DNA of 44,764 nucleotides from Microcaldota archaeon (GCA_023129075.1 JAGMCT010000014.1:1-44764), one strand, 5' to 3'; shown: positions 20,374-26,546, counted from the first letter of the stretch. The notes: generated from the letters alone by a model not told the origin. Program-made: numbers and translations.

Positions 20374-20384
20374 CCTTTAAAAAC
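20374..20384 (+). promoter_or_regulatory. TATA box of the VirB4-like operon
   Basis: CCTTTAAAAAC lies 34-44 bases before the ATG at 20418 and is the only strong TATA-like element in front of the five-gene operon. Confidence 0.5.
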
Positions 20385-20417: not shown

Positions 20418-21224
20418 ATGATTTCTAATAAATATATTTCTTATGGAATGGCCGGTGTCGGAGTTTTGGGAGCCCTGCTGGCCTTTGCCGGCGGAGGCGG
20501 AATTCTCGGCCTTATTGGAGGAATCCTCGCGGCCCTGGGAAGCTTTGGTGCAATTCTTGTCCTTAAATACGGCTACATTATTATTCCGATGATTACACAG
20601 CAGGCAAGGATTGTTGTGATGACTGATACGGGTTATGAAATCCCTCCTTCACAAGATGTCATCATCAAGAAAATAGGGGGTATATATTACGCATCAACAT
20701 TTCTTGCAGTGAGAATATACGAATCCTCTACCGAAAGGTCGCTTGAACAGAATGTTGCCTACAACGAATATTTTGAAAGGGCAATCTCCAATCTTAAATA
20801 TGTAGTGAAGATAGCGCTCATGCTGTATGCAGAGAATATCACAGAAAAAAGAAAGATAATAGAAACCAAAAGAGCAGAATCACAGCTCAGGCTTGCAAGA
20901 GAAAGAGAAAAAGCAGAGCCGGATGTGCTCAAAATGGACCAATATGAAAGACAGGTTTCAATGTGGGACTCACAGCTGAATAAACTCATAAGCGGTATAA
21001 GGCCCATGGGGGTGCTTTCGTATGCAATGACTACTGCTGCAGGAATAACAAAAGAATCAGCTGTTGCAAAGGTAAAGTCGCAGGCAAGGGAGCTCAGCAC
21101 AACCCTTGCAAATGCATTGAATGTGCAGGTTGAGCAGTTGACTGGAGATGAGATGCTCAAGTGCTTTGAATGGGAAAAGGTGTTCCCTACATCTCCTGAA
21201 GAGCTGGAGAGTGTTGTTGATTAG
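20418..21224 (+). CDS. Two-helix membrane protein, possible detached VirB4/TraC N-terminal part
   Basis: A 268-residue protein. Residues 5-60 contain two hydrophobic, glycine-rich membrane segments (GVGVLGALLAFAGGGG and the following GGILAALGSFGAILVL). After them come a soluble alpha/beta part (TDTGYEIPPSQDVIIKKIGG) and a long charged helical region (about 140-190). The pattern of a strand-rich segment, then long helices around a MWDSQLNKL block, recalls the N-terminal domain that precedes the ATPase in VirB4/TraC proteins. This gene directly precedes a VirB4-like ATPase that lacks such a domain. I propose it anchors that ATPase to the membrane. The resemblance is structural pattern only and unproven. 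Confidence 0.6.
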   Translation: MISNKYISYGMAGVGVLGALLAFAGGGGILGLIGGILAALGSFGAILVLKYGYIIIPMITQQARIVVMTDTGYEIPPSQDVIIKKIGGIYYASTFLAVRIYESSTERSLEQNVAYNEYFERAISNLKYVVKIALMLYAENITEKRKIIETKRAESQLRLAREREKAEPDVLKMDQYERQVSMWDSQLNKLISGIRPMGVLSYAMTTAAGITKESAVAKVKSQARELSTTLANALNVQVEQLTGDEMLKCFEWEKVFPTSPEELESVVD

Positions 21225-21233
21225 GTGAAATAA

Positions 21234-22802
21234 ATGGGAAGGTTGAAGATATCCAAGGTTTCCAACAAGGAGATTTCAAGAAGAAACATTCTTGTTCATC
21301 CTCCTGAACCGCCGATGCACGTACTTTTCAAGGACCCCTCCAATTCAATATTTATAGGAAGAACCAAGATGCTTCATGTTCCTTTCTACTGGACGTTCCA
21401 GGAGACAACAAATCCGCACATAGCTGCCTGCGGTATTACAGGAAGCGGTAAAAGTTACTTCATTAAAACATTTCTTGTCCGCGCCTCATTTGTGTGGAAT
21501 TCCAATTCCCTTATAATAGACTGGGCAGGGGAATACAAGGCTTGGGTGAGGCAGACAGGGGGAAAGGTCATCTCTCTTGGAAAAGGTTCTTATCTCAATC
21601 TTCTGGATCTTGGAGGAATGAAACCATATAATAGGATAAAACAAGTAATGAGAACACTTGCCCTTCTTACAGATGTAGATAAATACCCTGAGCAGAAACG
21701 GCTCACAGAGCAGGCTATAGAAAAGGCATATGTTGAGAACAAATTTAGAATGGACGTAAAGGAGCAAAGGGATGAACTTGGGAAGCCACTTACTCCTCCA
21801 ACATTAAAGGACGTTGTACGTATTCTTGAAGAGATGTCTTCAATGGGAACCTATGAGTTTCCGGCAGAGCTTGATAATGCCATATATAGACTCAGGCAGT
21901 TTACAAGGCCTGGAGAGGATTTTTTTGCACAGCAGAGCACAGTGAGCATGGACGACTTGACGACCTCTGGTCTTGTTGACCTTGACCTTTCAGGTCTGCC
22001 CGATGAAACATTCAGGGCCCTCGGCGCGCTTGCAATTCTTCAGTTCCTAAAAGAAAGGATGAGAATGGTCGGCTGGTCCAAGAAGAAGGGGATAGACCTT
22101 ATAATCGTTCTTGATGAAGCATGGAAGATTGGGAAGGATGACAACAGCGACGCAGTTATGATAATAAGGGAGGGCAGAAAATATAATTTTGCGCTCTTTG
22201 TTGCAAGTCAGAATCCTACAGATATAAGCGAGGCAATCTTCTCCAACGTTGGAACAACATTCATTCTCAAGGTTAAATTTGATAAGTTTCTTAACTACCT
22301 TCAGAACACACTAAATTTCAGCAATTTTATGCGTTCAGAGATAATGAAATTTGGAGTAGGACAGTGTGCAGTGGATATGGCATTTGCAGCCGCCACCTCA
22401 TTCCCGTCTACATTCCTTTTGGATAAAATAGAGGGTGAGGAACCTTCAAAGGAATTCTTTCTTGATATGGAAAGCGCATATGAGGGTAAAGAGATGATGG
22501 ATATGGCAAGGAGCATTTCATTCTTAAAAGAAAACATGAAGAAAAGACTGCTTGGTTTCGGGCTTGATGAAAGCAGGATTGAGGAGGTCATAAGCCTTTT
22601 TGATAAAAAGAACCGTCATATAGATGTTATCTCCTTTGTTGTGCTTCTGGAGAGGTATGGAGTTGCGCGTTCAAACATAACATCCTTCCTCAAAGAGGTT
22701 GGTGTGGATGATGCAACCATCATAAACATCTTTACAAAGGCTGACAGAAAGAAGGGAGGCCTTGTTGGGGGAGACATAACCCAGGTTATCCTGGAGGAAT
22801 AA
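21234..22802 (+). CDS. VirB4/HerA-like (DUF87-type) ATPase
   Basis: A 522-residue ATPase of the VirB4/TraC/HerA-FtsK group. Walker A is GITGSGKS (67-74) and Walker B ends LIIVLDEAW (DEAW at 294-297). A sensor-like ASQNPTDI and a downstream arginine-containing segment match the T4SS coupling/assembly ATPases. The N-terminal 60 residues are short, so the usual VirB4 N-terminal domain is missing and may be supplied by the gene at 20418. The C-terminal 120 residues form helical repeats (FGLDESRIEEVISLF) that look like an added partner-binding module. AGGTGA sits just before the ATG, nine bases after the previous stop. The family drives DNA or protein through membranes by ATP hydrolysis. CedB of Sulfolobales is a related type. 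Confidence 0.85.
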   Translation: MGRLKISKVSNKEISRRNILVHPPEPPMHVLFKDPSNSIFIGRTKMLHVPFYWTFQETTNPHIAACGITGSGKSYFIKTFLVRASFVWNSNSLIIDWAGEYKAWVRQTGGKVISLGKGSYLNLLDLGGMKPYNRIKQVMRTLALLTDVDKYPEQKRLTEQAIEKAYVENKFRMDVKEQRDELGKPLTPPTLKDVVRILEEMSSMGTYEFPAELDNAIYRLRQFTRPGEDFFAQQSTVSMDDLTTSGLVDLDLSGLPDETFRALGALAILQFLKERMRMVGWSKKKGIDLIIVLDEAWKIGKDDNSDAVMIIREGRKYNFALFVASQNPTDISEAIFSNVGTTFILKVKFDKFLNYLQNTLNFSNFMRSEIMKFGVGQCAVDMAFAAATSFPSTFLLDKIEGEEPSKEFFLDMESAYEGKEMMDMARSISFLKENMKKRLLGFGLDESRIEEVISLFDKKNRHIDVISFVVLLERYGVARSNITSFLKEVGVDDATIINIFTKADRKKGGLVGGDITQVILEE

Positions 22803-22803
22803 A

Positions 22804-23214
22804 ATGGCAAAGGTTTGTTTGATATCCAAAAAAGAGGTAAAGGAAGGCTATCCAATAATTGAAGACCCGGTTGTACAGACCATCAGAAAGATAAAGAAAA
22901 GATTCGGTCTTCTGCAGAATAATGAAATTGTTGTTTCTCCAGAGCATCTTGAAACCTACAAAAAGAAGAGAGAGGCTTTTGAAAGGAACCTTGTGATTTA
23001 TTCTGCAGTAGCGATAATTGTTGTAGTAGTATTTTCTACTCTCCCGATAATCCTCTCAGGAACATTCAATTTTATGGCTGTTCTTTATTCGTTTTTGCTT
23101 GGAATAATGATAGTGCTTTTTGCTCTTATGGGTTACCTTCCGCAGGTGGATACTGGTAAGGTAATAAAACCAGCAGGAAAGGAAGCAAGGAAGCCGGCTA
23201 AAAAGAAGAGGTGA
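22804..23214 (+). CDS. Small membrane protein with two C-terminal helices
   Basis: A 136-residue protein in the VirB4-like operon. Residues 1-58 are soluble and basic, with a single Cys (KVCLISKKEV). Two membrane segments at about 60-82 and 88-112 are separated by a short loop, and a Lys/Ala/Pro-rich tail follows (PAGKEARKPAKKKR). The topology places both ends in the cytoplasm. It begins one base after the upstream stop, with GGAGGAAT as ribosome binding site, and its stop is five bases before the next start. No known family is recognised. Size and topology resemble small inner-membrane subunits of translocation machines such as VirB3 or CedA1, but I see no sequence proof. Confidence 0.65.
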   Translation: MAKVCLISKKEVKEGYPIIEDPVVQTIRKIKKRFGLLQNNEIVVSPEHLETYKKKREAFERNLVIYSAVAIIVVVVFSTLPIILSGTFNFMAVLYSFLLGIMIVLFALMGYLPQVDTGKVIKPAGKEARKPAKKKR

Positions 23215-23219
23215 AAAAA

Positions 23220-23972
23220 GTGGCGGATGAAAAGAAAGAGGAAAAGAAACAACCTCCTAAGTTTTCAGAACCCATGGTTGATGGGTTTAAATTGAAGGTA
23301 AAGATAAAAGGTTCACTGAAAGATGCAGCTACCCTTCTGAGATCAGTTTCTTTACTGGAAGTTGCTCCTGAAAAGGATGTTGTTAATGCTGTTTATGTTG
23401 AAAACAGGGACATACACAAAAAGCCTTATGTATTCCTTGTAATGAGATTCAGGGAGGACGAGGTTGAATTTATATACAGCGTTCCGCCTGAGATATCTCC
23501 AACACGAAGAAGATTGGATATGATTCGTTACCTGATGAATATACTCTCGCTTCTCGGAGATTGTTATGAGATTGACGGCAAGATTGTTTACCAGCTTATT
23601 GAATCCTCTTTAAAGGAGATGGATAGCTATGCTTCGCTTGATTTCAAAAGGCTTTATACAGAATATGACCACATGAAAAAGAAATTGGATGATTCAATAG
23701 CAAAGGCAGGAATATATGAAAAAAGAGCAGACCAGATTTCCAAGGAAAATTATGAATTGAAGAATAGACTTGATGAGCTTGAGATTCAGGTGAGGAAGAT
23801 GAGGGGATTATCTGAAAAGGTGTTGGTTTCAAAGGTTCAGGAATGGATATTAGACCATAATGGCATCATTAACATCTCTGATTTCGCAAAGACATTTCAT
23901 GTTCCCGATTCTCGTGTGGAAGGGGCCCTCAACAAACTTGTGAGGGATGGTTATTTGGAGTTAGTCCAGTGA
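23220..23972 (+). CDS. Coiled-coil protein with C-terminal winged helix
   Basis: A 250-residue cytoplasmic protein. The start is taken as the GTG at 23220, five bases after AGAGGTGA; GTG at 23211 is the alternative. Residues 1-20 are Lys/Glu rich. Residues 25-130 form an alpha/beta domain (FKLKVKIKGSLKDAATLLRS). A coiled coil lies at about 145-195 (YELKNRLDELEIQVRKM). The last 55 residues form a winged-helix-like domain (VQEWILDHNGIINISDFAKT then VEGALNKLVRDGYLEL). The winged helix could bind DNA or act as an adaptor. I do not recognise the family. The tight operon position implies it is a subunit of the same machine. Confidence 0.65.
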   Translation: MADEKKEEKKQPPKFSEPMVDGFKLKVKIKGSLKDAATLLRSVSLLEVAPEKDVVNAVYVENRDIHKKPYVFLVMRFREDEVEFIYSVPPEISPTRRRLDMIRYLMNILSLLGDCYEIDGKIVYQLIESSLKEMDSYASLDFKRLYTEYDHMKKKLDDSIAKAGIYEKRADQISKENYELKNRLDELEIQVRKMRGLSEKVLVSKVQEWILDHNGIINISDFAKTFHVPDSRVEGALNKLVRDGYLELVQ

Positions 23973-23978
23973 GTGAAA

Positions 23979-26546
23979 ATGGCCAAAAAAATAAAGGACT
24001 TCAAAAAAATAAAGGATATTGGAAAATTAAAAATAAAGAAGAAAATGTTTTCCTTTGAGGTTAGAGAAAGATATAATTACGAAGAGAAATACAAAACTAT
24101 AGAAAAACCCCCGATAGAAAAGCTCAGGGATTTCCTTGATGGTTTTAAAAAGAAGGAAAAGCCTGAGAAGATTGAGAAGATGAAGAAAAGGATAAAGAAA
24201 GAAAAATTTGTTCTTCCCTTTGGTTTTGATAAGAAAATGGTTTCCATGGCTAAATGGGCTATTCCCTTGGCTTTATTGCTTGCAGTAGGAATATGGCTTT
24301 TTCTTGGAACCTTTACCCCTTCTTCTCTCGCCACAGATGGACAGATTGTTTCTGTTTCCAGGATTTCAGGAAGCATATTTGACAGTAATATCATAAGTGC
24401 ATCAATGGAAATGGACAGCTCTGCAAAAAACATTGCCCAGGCCGTTTTCCGTTTGGATACCGAAGCGGTTGAAGGTCTAAATGTAAAGATAGATGCATAT
24501 TCAGGAACCGTTCCCAGTTCTGTTTATTTTTTTAAGAGCACAACCTACCAATCCACATCCTATCCTGCGTTTAAGCGTTATCTAATAAATATGCTTGAGA
24601 AAAAGGACATACCTTATGGAGAGATAGATTATACTGAATTAAAATCACTTCCAAGGGGTTCTCTTCTTGTCGTTCCTTCAGGTTATCTTCCAGCCCCTTT
24701 ATTCGGAGAGGAGGATGGTGTTTTTTTTGATGAACTGCTTTCAAGAGGAGTTACCATAATATATCTTGGTCAGCCCCTTAACAAAATGATAACCTCAAGG
24801 GACGAGATAAAGAACTCCCCTGCGGTTGTTTTAACAAAACAGGGGATAAAGACAACAAGTGCAGGGCTTCCGTCGGGAATAAATCTCAGAAATCCACTTT
24901 ATGTTCTGAGCGGAATGGATTCAGACCAGGTTCTCTATGGTTGTGTGAGCGCCCTTTCCTATGGAGAAGGATACTTGGTTACACTGCCCCAGACGCTCGA
25001 TGTTGGATGGGAAAACCCGCTTGAGGCTGCAGATGATGTTATGCTTCTTATAGAAGAACTTCCATGGTTAAACAAGGTTTCCTCAAGGAGTATAGATGTG
25101 GCATACCTTGGCGACGGCGAATTCTGGTTTTTTTCTGCTCCTTTTACAGGCAATGAAATATACCTGAGAATTAGAGGTGTTGAACCCACCAATACAACTG
25201 GTTTTACGAAGGTTGTTCATGTTGAGAAAAAGCAAAAAGGAGAACTTCTTTATGTTACCGGAGACCCCTTTAAGGTCCTTCCGTTTGAGATAGGGGGGCT
25301 TGCAATAGATTTTGCAGCGCACTTAAAGGAAACCGTAAGGGAGGTAAAAGACCTTTTCCTGATTGTCCGCGGTTCAGAAGGCTTGATGGAAAGAACAGCA
25401 ATAGGAAGCAGGGTTGATGTAACCTCCAAACAGGCATTTTACCACCAGTTTTCAATTCCAGGAGGAGAATATGTGCTTGATGTTGTGGATGGAGAAGGAA
25501 AGATATATGCAAGCGCTTATATGCGTGTGGTCGGCCTTTTTATAGAATCAGTAGGAACCCCTGACTTTGAGAATAATAAATTTACATTCCAAACCCTTGT
25601 TGCAGGCGAGGCCCTTCCTGTAAGGAGTATAATAGTAACCATAGATGACGGAAAATATGGAATCCATACATTCAATGACGTTTCCCTCATACAATTAGAC
25701 ATAAAGGAAGATTATCCCGAACCTCTTCCTGTTGGAGAGCACAAATTCAGTTTCCAGGTGGGAAAGGCAGTATTTGACCTTACACTGGAAAAACCAAGAA
25801 GACAGACCCTGCTTGATGACCCAGTGATAATACTTACAATATTCCTTGCTATCGTAATTGTGGGAGCAGGAATAGTTTTTGCAAGACAGAGCCAGCCTGT
25901 TTATTCAATAGACATCCCTGACTTTCCTCCGCATGAAGTAAAGAAGATTGTGATAAAAAAACAGCAGATTCTTGATGTTTTCCCAAGAATAAATGAGAGG
26001 TATAAATGGAACGAGATGCCGTTAACCCTTTCTGAAATAAAAAGCGGTTTCAAGGACACCATGCACCATGGAATGAGTATTTTCATAAGTGATTATAATC
26101 TCCAGTATATTCTTCAGAAGCTTGTGGAGAAAGGGGATATTATAAAAGTACTGGATTATTACAGTGTTTCTTCATTGGGAGAAAATCAGCAGCTTAAGGC
26201 AATGTTCAGAAAGATCAGGGACATCTGCATAAATTATGCAGTGCCTTTTTCTCCACTAGGTAAATCAAAGGATCTTGATACAAAAATCCGTTTTATTGGA
26301 CAGGATTTTTACATTCATCTTTATGATGGAAACCTTCAGCGTATAATTCCTAATATTCTTTCATCAGCAGTAAAAGGAGTGAATATTATCCTTGTTAATG
26401 GAAAGAATGAGAAAAGAGAAGTCTATGGAAAGCTGATTTCGGATTCTTCGCTTGCAGGTTTGATAAAATTTGAGCTTCAGACAGGAAGCGTTTCCATAAA
26501 AACAGCAAAGGAACTGGAGGATATGATAAAAGAGATGAAAGGTTAG
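23979..26546 (+). CDS. Large bitopic membrane protein with external domain and cytoplasmic winged-helix-like tail
   Basis: An 855-residue protein, the last gene of the operon. The start is the ATG at 23979, after GTGAGTGA. Residues 1-88 are very basic. Membrane helix 1 is at about 93-113 (IPLALLLAVGIWLFLGTF). Residues 114-612 lie outside the cell and are rich in strands. They contain a Rossmann-like stretch (PSGYLPAPLFGEEDGVFF then GVTIIYLGQPLN), reminiscent of DUF4350/GATase-like sensor domains. Membrane helix 2 is at about 615-638 (VIILTIFLAIVIVGAGIVFA). The cytoplasmic tail (640-855) has a winged-helix-like block (LQYILQKLVEKGDIIKVL). Sequons such as NTT in the external part could be AglB targets. 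The gene meets polB tail to tail with a 4-bp overlap. The function is unknown. Confidence 0.7.
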   Translation: MAKKIKDFKKIKDIGKLKIKKKMFSFEVRERYNYEEKYKTIEKPPIEKLRDFLDGFKKKEKPEKIEKMKKRIKKEKFVLPFGFDKKMVSMAKWAIPLALLLAVGIWLFLGTFTPSSLATDGQIVSVSRISGSIFDSNIISASMEMDSSAKNIAQAVFRLDTEAVEGLNVKIDAYSGTVPSSVYFFKSTTYQSTSYPAFKRYLINMLEKKDIPYGEIDYTELKSLPRGSLLVVPSGYLPAPLFGEEDGVFFDELLSRGVTIIYLGQPLNKMITSRDEIKNSPAVVLTKQGIKTTSAGLPSGINLRNPLYVLSGMDSDQVLYGCVSALSYGEGYLVTLPQTLDVGWENPLEAADDVMLLIEELPWLNKVSSRSIDVAYLGDGEFWFFSAPFTGNEIYLRIRGVEPTNTTGFTKVVHVEKKQKGELLYVTGDPFKVLPFEIGGLAIDFAAHLKETVREVKDLFLIVRGSEGLMERTAIGSRVDVTSKQAFYHQFSIPGGEYVLDVVDGEGKIYASAYMRVVGLFIESVGTPDFENNKFTFQTLVAGEALPVRSIIVTIDDGKYGIHTFNDVSLIQLDIKEDYPEPLPVGEHKFSFQVGKAVFDLTLEKPRRQTLLDDPVIILTIFLAIVIVGAGIVFARQSQPVYSIDIPDFPPHEVKKIVIKKQQILDVFPRINERYKWNEMPLTLSEIKSGFKDTMHHGMSIFISDYNLQYILQKLVEKGDIIKVLDYYSVSSLGENQQLKAMFRKIRDICINYAVPFSPLGKSKDLDTKIRFIGQDFYIHLYDGNLQRIIPNILSSAVKGVNIILVNGKNEKREVYGKLISDSSLAGLIKFELQTGSVSIKTAKELEDMIKEMKG

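What the first reader, a model, noticed from the sequence alone, without database searches (positions are those of the whole stretch)
20418..26546. Five-gene VirB4-like membrane operon with unfamiliar partners
Seen: a tightly spaced operon of a two-helix membrane protein, a VirB4/HerA-type ATPase (Walker A 67-74, DEAW 294-297), a small two-helix membrane protein, a coiled-coil winged-helix protein and an 855-residue bitopic protein with about 500 external residues. Known: VirB4-type ATPases power conjugation and the archaeal Ced DNA importer. Inference: this is a chromosomal translocation machine in which VirB4 is split into a membrane subunit and an ATPase. The two winged-helix-like cytoplasmic domains could hold DNA. 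No relaxase, VirD4, pilin or prepilin peptidase is nearby, so it is not an ordinary conjugative element. It sits between housekeeping genes, which suggests a core function in the lineage.
Basis: partly seen in the sequence, partly recalled or inferred. Interest (0 to 1): 0.82.

Follow-up and report, generated by a model that had tools for sequence, protein, structure and literature searches.

The report
Split VirB4 secretion machine of Micrarchaeota
Almost all tiny host-dependent archaea of the phylum Micrarchaeota carry, as part of their normal chromosome, a rearranged relative of the type IV secretion (conjugation) machine, which is a strong candidate for how they exchange material with other cells.

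Summary
The five-gene operon is real. The genome is a Micrarchaeote (DPANN). A-B-C-D-E keep order and strand in 55 of 57 loci with enough flank, between changing neighbours; gene A occurs in 179 of 196 Micrarchaeota genomes. B is a VirB4/CedB-type ATPase without an N-terminal domain, well separated from HerA. A is a two-helix membrane anchor plus an AlphaFold domain whose three best PDB matches are VirB4 of the R388 conjugation machine (modest scores).

The machine is larger than the finding. A CedA/VirB6-like membrane family accompanies it: exactly six tandem, position-specific paralogs in each of 13 arrays examined. In Ca. Fermentimicrarchaeum the order is two VirB2-like pilins, six channel genes, A-A-B-C-D-E, one strand. 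The window's genome has two six-gene arrays, VirB2/TrbC pilins elsewhere, and a compact second set (pilin-channel-A'-B'-D'). Of 17 genomes without A, 15 lack the channel family and two hold only fragments.

Best reading: a chromosomal type IV secretion-like machine, a new variant, comparable to the Patescibacterial T4SS needed for epibiotic growth. Cargo and direction are unknown. No earlier description turned up in the papers searched.

The parts
20375..20384 (+). TATA-like box (CTTTAAAAAC), probable promoter of the operon
   Evidence: sequence; 43 bases before the start of A; inference
20418..21224 (+). Gene A, 268 aa: VirB3-like two-helix membrane anchor (helices 4-24, 29-63) plus a detached VirB4 N-terminal-type alpha/beta domain with a helical hairpin
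   Evidence: AlphaFold pLDDT 87; Foldseek PDB top three = R388 VirB4, prob 1.00/0.97/0.99, best E 4.4e-3; in 179 of 196 Micrarchaeota genomes
21234..22802 (+). Gene B, 522 aa: VirB4/CedB-type ATPase (Walker A 67-74, DEAW 294-297) lacking the N-terminal domain; about 100-residue helical C-terminal domain that is a separate gene in other families
   Evidence: Pfam AAA_10/DUF87/P-loop_TraG; NCBIfam CedD/CedB best; tree apart from HerA
22804..23214 (+). Gene C, 136 aa: zinc-ribbon-like N-terminus (CxxC...CxxC in most relatives, largely lost here) plus two membrane helices and a basic tail
   Evidence: family alignment, hydropathy, conserved in 55 of 57 loci
23211..23972 (+). Gene D, 253 aa: alpha/beta-like N-terminal domain, coiled coil and C-terminal winged-helix-like domain
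   Evidence: family alignment; weak Pfam PCI/MarR/CdvA hits; also present in the second set
23973..26546 (+). Gene E, 857 aa: cytoplasmic N-terminus, membrane helix, external Rossmann-like domain plus Ig-like beta-sandwiches, second membrane helix, cytoplasmic winged-helix-like and alpha/beta domains
   Evidence: AlphaFold pLDDT 85; Foldseek matches to tandem Ig-like and adhesin domains

Best explanation
The operon encodes the membrane-anchored motor of a chromosomal type IV secretion-like machine of Micrarchaeota. Protein A anchors and caps a hexamer of ATPase B, the two together doing the work of VirB3 plus VirB4. The motor sits under a channel made of CedA/VirB6-like proteins, which in set 1 are six different paralogs encoded as a fixed-order array; a six-membered mixed ring matching the ATPase hexamer is my inference. 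VirB2-like pilins form or line the extension. C is a small membrane adaptor, D a cytoplasmic coiled-coil, winged-helix coupling or gating factor, and E a surface protein whose Ig-like part faces the partner cell. Cargo, my estimates: protein or metabolite exchange with host or neighbour cells about 45%, DNA uptake or exchange as in Ced/Ted about 35%, pilus assembly and attachment only about 20%. Shown here: gene content, order, co-occurrence, fold and homology assignments. Inferred: complex formation, ring stoichiometry, roles of C, D and E, cargo, direction.
For: ATPase class. A as VirB4 N-domain: confident model, R388 VirB4 first of 350,542 PDB chains, and in the viral library second hit 'component of type IV transporter system'. 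Operon conservation; phylum survey. Channel family: found upstream of A in about 30 named loci, NCBIfam CedA the top family (best E 5.3e-6; 8.3e-7 in A_DKE, 6.8e-6 in G051). Exactly six per array in 13 arrays, best hits on the diagonal in 120/120 comparisons within each array type. Contiguous pilins-array-A-A-B-C-D-E in Fermentimicrarchaeum (L220). VirB2/TrbC over Pfam's cut-off in the window's own genome (33.0 bits). Co-loss: of 17 genomes without A, 15 have no channel gene and 2 only fragments; genomes with a single A have a single channel gene. Compact second set in the own genome and in A_DKE.
Against: A matches VirB4 only by fold, with modest scores (E 4.4e-3, TM 0.32); profile-profile comparison with VirB4 N-domains available here was not significant (shallow templates). 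The CedA model does not reach E 1 in the window's own genome; the link there rests on the A6 profile. No VirB8 or VirD4 was identified. Array-motor linkage is physical only in other families; in the window's family the arrays are unlinked. No experiment shows transport.
Confidence: 0.78

Rival explanations
1. A Ced/Ted-like DNA importer: the machine takes up single-stranded DNA from relatives or hosts for repair and gene acquisition.
For: B scores best against CedD and CedB and the channel family against CedA; small two-helix pilins resemble VirB2/CedA1/TedC. Ced imports DNA in Sulfolobales (PMC11868833).
Against: All scores are far below the CedB/CedD cut-offs (700 and 600 bits). C, E and the six-gene arrays have no Ced counterpart known to me. 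No Ups pili link or DNA-damage regulation was tested.
Confidence: 0.3
2. A pilus-assembly machine only: the VirB4-type motor extracts VirB2-like subunits from the membrane to build attachment pili, with no cargo transfer.
For: Several VirB2-like genes per genome; VirB4 drives pilus biogenesis in known systems.
Against: Six distinct channel paralogs per array and a second complete set suggest more than pilus extrusion.
Confidence: 0.15
3. A HerA-type DNA repair or segregation motor that happens to neighbour membrane genes.
For: B matches Pfam DUF87 'HerA central domain' and HerA structures by sequence.
Against: HerA from the same phylum forms a separate 100/100 clade; the partner A is a membrane protein with a VirB4-like domain; no NurA in the operon.
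Confidence: 0.04
4. A mobile conjugative element frozen in the genome.
For: VirB4-like motor plus VirB2- and VirB6-like parts are typical of integrative elements.
Against: Vertical-type conservation at 51-80% identity across the phylum, varying housekeeping neighbours; no match to A in plasmid or phage records. No relaxase was seen among the operon's genes, but a genome-wide search for one was not run.
Confidence: 0.03

Closest known systems
Patescibacteria T4SS (MPF-FATA-like; VirB4, TrsD, PrgI, VirB6, VirB2-like)
   Same: Chromosomal, lineage-wide T4SS in ultrasmall host-dependent cells; TrsD is a separate protein related to the VirB4 N-terminal part; no relaxase in most clusters; T4SS genes reported essential for epibiotic growth (PMC12102498).
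   Different: As described there VirB4 is accompanied by VirB3/PrgI and VirB6 homologues. Here VirB4 lacks its N-domain, the anchor and N-domain are one protein, there are six channel paralogs per array, and C, D and E are unknown families.
Ced/Ted DNA import systems of Crenarchaeota (CedA, CedA1, CedB, CedD, CedE; TedA-C)
   Same: VirB4-like motor, CedA/VirB6-like channel, small VirB2-like pilins, chromosomal; CedB and CedD are reported to cover different parts of the VirB4 N-domain (PMC11868833, PMC9905601).
   Different: CedB and CedD keep their own N-domains and ATPases; Ced has CedA (plus the paralog CedE in Saccharolobus), not six-gene arrays; no relatives of C or E are named in the passages read; bit scores are far under the family cut-offs.
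Bacterial VirB/D4 T4SS (R388 TrwK)
   Same: Fold of A resembles the VirB4 N-domain; B is the VirB4 C-domain; VirB2 and VirB6 counterparts.
   Different: No VirB8, VirB10 or VirD4 identified; VirB4 split.
HerA-NurA
   Same: Shared HerA/FtsK-superfamily ATPase core.
   Different: Separate clade, membrane partners.

Membership tests
Type IV secretion superfamily | VirB4-type ATPase | tested here: met
   NCBIfam VirB4/TraC/CedB models match all 29 members; tree places B outside HerA and beside VirB4
Type IV secretion superfamily | VirB4 N-terminal domain and membrane anchor (VirB3) | tested here: met
   In trans, as protein A: AlphaFold and Foldseek top three = R388 VirB4; profile alignment alone not significant
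Type IV secretion superfamily | VirB6/CedA-type polytopic channel | tested here: met
   CedA model hits in relatives, E 8e-7 to 5e-5; below curated cut-off, no hit under E 1 in own genome; co-occurrence
Type IV secretion superfamily | VirB2/TrbC pilin | tested here: met
   Own genome 33.0 bits against cut-off 27.9; Fermentimicrarchaeum 29.7; the control shows the model also rings below cut-off in 12 of 14 genomes and above it in 2
Type IV secretion superfamily | VirB8 assembly factor and VirD4 coupling protein | not tested
   None recognised in the operon; no genome-wide model search was run
Ced system | CedB/CedD above curated cut-off | tested here: not met
   66.3 of 700 bits and 73.8 of 600 bits
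Ced system | CedA above curated cut-off (330 bits) | tested here: not met
   best 27.4 bits
Ced system | DNA import activity, DNA-damage induction | not testable with these tools
   needs experiment
HerA-NurA repair | ATPase in the HerA clade | tested here: not met
   HerA monophyletic 100/100 without B
Conjugative element | Presence on plasmids or phages, relaxase | tested here: inconclusive
   No match to A in plasmid or phage records; relaxase not searched genome-wide

The most novel reading that the evidence does not exclude
Micrarchaeota use a dedicated T4SS-derived organelle with a mixed ring of six different CedA/VirB6-like subunits to open a conduit to their host. In the cultured strain ARM-1, whose genome carries B-C-D-E, a six-gene array and a second motor set, this could be the 21-nm barrel in the symbiont envelope on which host nanotubes were seen to dock (PMC11329633).
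Probability: 0.2. Interest if true: 0.95.

Novelty: new variant of a known kind. Interest (0 to 1): 0.82.

Why it matters
How DPANN symbionts move material between themselves and hosts is open: A_DKE was reported to have few transporters and large gaps in amino-acid synthesis (PMC8975820), and the ARM-1 docking barrel is a structure for which the passages read name no gene (PMC11329633). A phylum-wide, co-lost machine with recognisable VirB2, VirB4 and VirB6 relatives gives named genes to localise, tag or inhibit in two existing co-cultures. It parallels the Patescibacterial T4SS, suggesting that bacterial and archaeal ultrasmall symbionts may have adopted T4SS-like machines independently. The fixed six-paralog arrays would be an unusual solution for a T4SS channel.

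Tried and rejected
HerA repair reading: rejected by tree. Profile-profile alignment of A against VirB4 N-domains from Micrarchaeota elements, F-type TraC, Brevibacillus and Alicyclobacillus: no significance, so the assignment rests on fold. Pfam on A, C, D, E and the channel family: nothing above cut-off, apart from Ig domains inserted in one channel paralog. PDB profile searches with A, E and the channel alignment: no relative. The viral-contig search with A could not be run, as no conserved seed exists. Literature: searches on Micrarchaeota or Micrarchaeum with VirB4, type IV secretion or secretion system gave no description of this system; the Mia14 genome paper lists type IV pili and Sec/Tat, not this. 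Surveys outside Micrarchaeota were not possible (one genome-contig scan); most of the best 80 loci carry Micrarchaeota titles, a few other or unnamed archaeal titles, so phylum-specificity is not proven. CedB/CedD sequences were not at hand for the tree.

Full report
Observation. E has 857 residues and two membrane helices rather than one. The operon starts after a 280-base intergenic stretch with a TATA-like box and ends convergently with DNA polymerase B.

Lineage and conservation. The window lies in a 0.99-Mb genome in 25 contigs. The closest named relatives are Candidatus Micrarchaeota, including the complete genomes of Ca. Fermentimicrarchaeum limneticum, Ca. Micrarchaeum A_DKE and ARM-1. 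A match to B is found in 59 of 59 relatives, set-1 copies mostly at 53-75% identity. Among 57 named loci with enough flank, 55 have A-B-C-D-E in order on one strand; flanking genes differ from locus to locus. In many families A is duplicated in tandem (29 of 57) and the roughly 100-residue C-terminal domain of B is encoded as a separate small gene (33 of 57). In a phylum-wide sample A is present in 179 of 196 genomes.

The ATPase. B matches Pfam AAA_10, DUF87 and P-loop_TraG. Among curated NCBIfam models CedD and CedB score best, followed by VirB4/TraC, then HerA, all far under the family cut-offs. In a maximum-likelihood tree of 50 ATPase domains, HerA proteins of the same phylum form one clade (100/100) and B, its paralogs and VirB4 proteins lie on the other side. 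B begins only 66 residues before its Walker A motif, so the N-terminal domain of VirB4 is missing.

The membrane subunit. An AlphaFold model of A built from 47 relatives has mean pLDDT 87 and shows a two-helix membrane hairpin followed by an alpha/beta domain with a long helical hairpin. The three best matches among 350,542 PDB chains are all VirB4 of the R388 T4SS inner-membrane complex (prob 1.00, 0.97, 0.99; best E 4.4e-3; that these chains are VirB4/TrwK is my reading of the entries); against viral models the second hit is named 'component of type IV transporter system'. These scores are modest, and sequence-profile comparison does not reach significance. Together with the constant adjacency of A and B, the best reading is a VirB3-like anchor plus VirB4 N-domain supplied in trans. 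The published analogues are TrsD of MPF-FATA and Patescibacteria (PMC12102498) and the division of the VirB4 N-domain between CedB and CedD (PMC11868833).

The other partners. C has a CxxC...CxxC motif in most relatives and two membrane helices. D has an N-terminal domain, a coiled coil and a C-terminal winged-helix-like domain. E (pLDDT 85) has a roughly 500-residue external part with a Rossmann-like domain and Ig-like sandwiches, which match adhesin and complement-type Ig domains, and cytoplasmic helical and alpha/beta domains. DNA binding by D or E is possible but untested.

The missing channel. In about 30 named loci a family of polytopic membrane proteins stands head-to-tail directly upstream of A, with a conserved core FLPxGxxLRxFxxTRxAGGxLIA. 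Its best named relative is CedA (E 5.3e-6; up to 8.3e-7 per genome, not above cut-off). It occurs in 58 of 59 relatives. Thirteen arrays read in full each contain exactly six paralogs, and each position finds the same position in other genomes in 120/120 comparisons within array type 1 and 120/120 within type 2. The window's genome has array 1 at G000:C2:53715-60241, array 2 at G000:C5:106484-113741 and a single copy at G000:C1:12473-13390.

The pilins and second set. In Fermentimicrarchaeum two small proteins precede the array, which runs straight into A-A-B-C-D-E; one of them matches TrbC/VirB2 (E 1.1e-4) and T4SS_pilin (2.1e-4), below the curated cut-offs, and the other is 59% identical to it. 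The window's genome has a VirB2/TrbC protein over Pfam's cut-off at G000:C15:20050-20322 and several related genes nearby. It also holds a compact second set, an 81-residue pilin-like gene, then channel, A', B', D', on contig 1; A_DKE has a similar pilin-channel-A'-B' set.

Co-loss. Of the 17 genomes without A, 15 lack any channel gene and the other two have only fragments; three genomes with a single A have exactly one channel gene; four further A-positive genomes have 8 to 18 matches. Motor and channel behave as one unit.

Interpretation. The parts amount to a minimal T4SS: VirB2-like pilins, VirB6/CedA-like channel, VirB3/VirB4 split motor, plus three unknown partners. VirB8 and VirD4 were not identified, and no genome-wide search for them was run. 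The six fixed channel paralogs suggest a mixed ring matched to the ATPase hexamer (inference). Since Micrarchaeota depend on hosts, and Patescibacteria need their T4SS for epibiotic growth (PMC12102498), exchange with other cells is the leading role; DNA import as in Ced/Ted is the main rival.

Noticed in passing
G000:C2:53715-60241 and G000:C5:106484-113741 (L209, L210): Two arrays of six tandem CedA/VirB6-like paralogs; array 2 is followed by a giant lipoprotein-like protein (1855 aa) and a 283-aa secreted protein, with large counterparts beside array 2 in other genomes.
   Followed up: partly
G000:C1:12223-16317 (L033:7223-11317): Compact second T4SS-like set: 81-aa pilin-like gene, channel, A', B', D', next to a GARS gene.
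   Followed up: yes
G000:C15:10578-20367 (L268): Cluster of VirB2/TrbC-like pilin genes, three of them near-identical in tandem, and one 573-aa protein with a pilin-like part.
   Followed up: partly
window:22400-22802 (C-terminal domain of B): Weak EF-hand-like match (calcium-dependent protein kinase, E 9.8e-4); this domain is a separate gene in many Micrarchaeota.
   Followed up: no
L145-L153, L165, L167: Several Micrarchaeota genomes also carry full-length conjugation-type VirB4 genes (738-1019 aa), distinct from this system.
   Followed up: partly
L185:731-1729, L186:1162-1899: Brevibacillus and Alicyclobacillus plasmids carry a separate one-helix protein, possibly VirB4 N-domain-like by eye, directly upstream of VirB4.
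   Followed up: partly
L213:2224-4432, L215:229-2379: Array 1 lies close to two FtsZ-like genes in two genomes (judged by eye).
   Followed up: no
L126, L221, L222 (ARM-1): ARM-1 has B-C-D-E, a six-gene array and a second set at separate loci; no set-1 A was found beside B.
   Followed up: partly
window:19481-20137: 218-aa gene between ADSL and the operon without any Pfam match; not seen in the other loci read.
   Followed up: no
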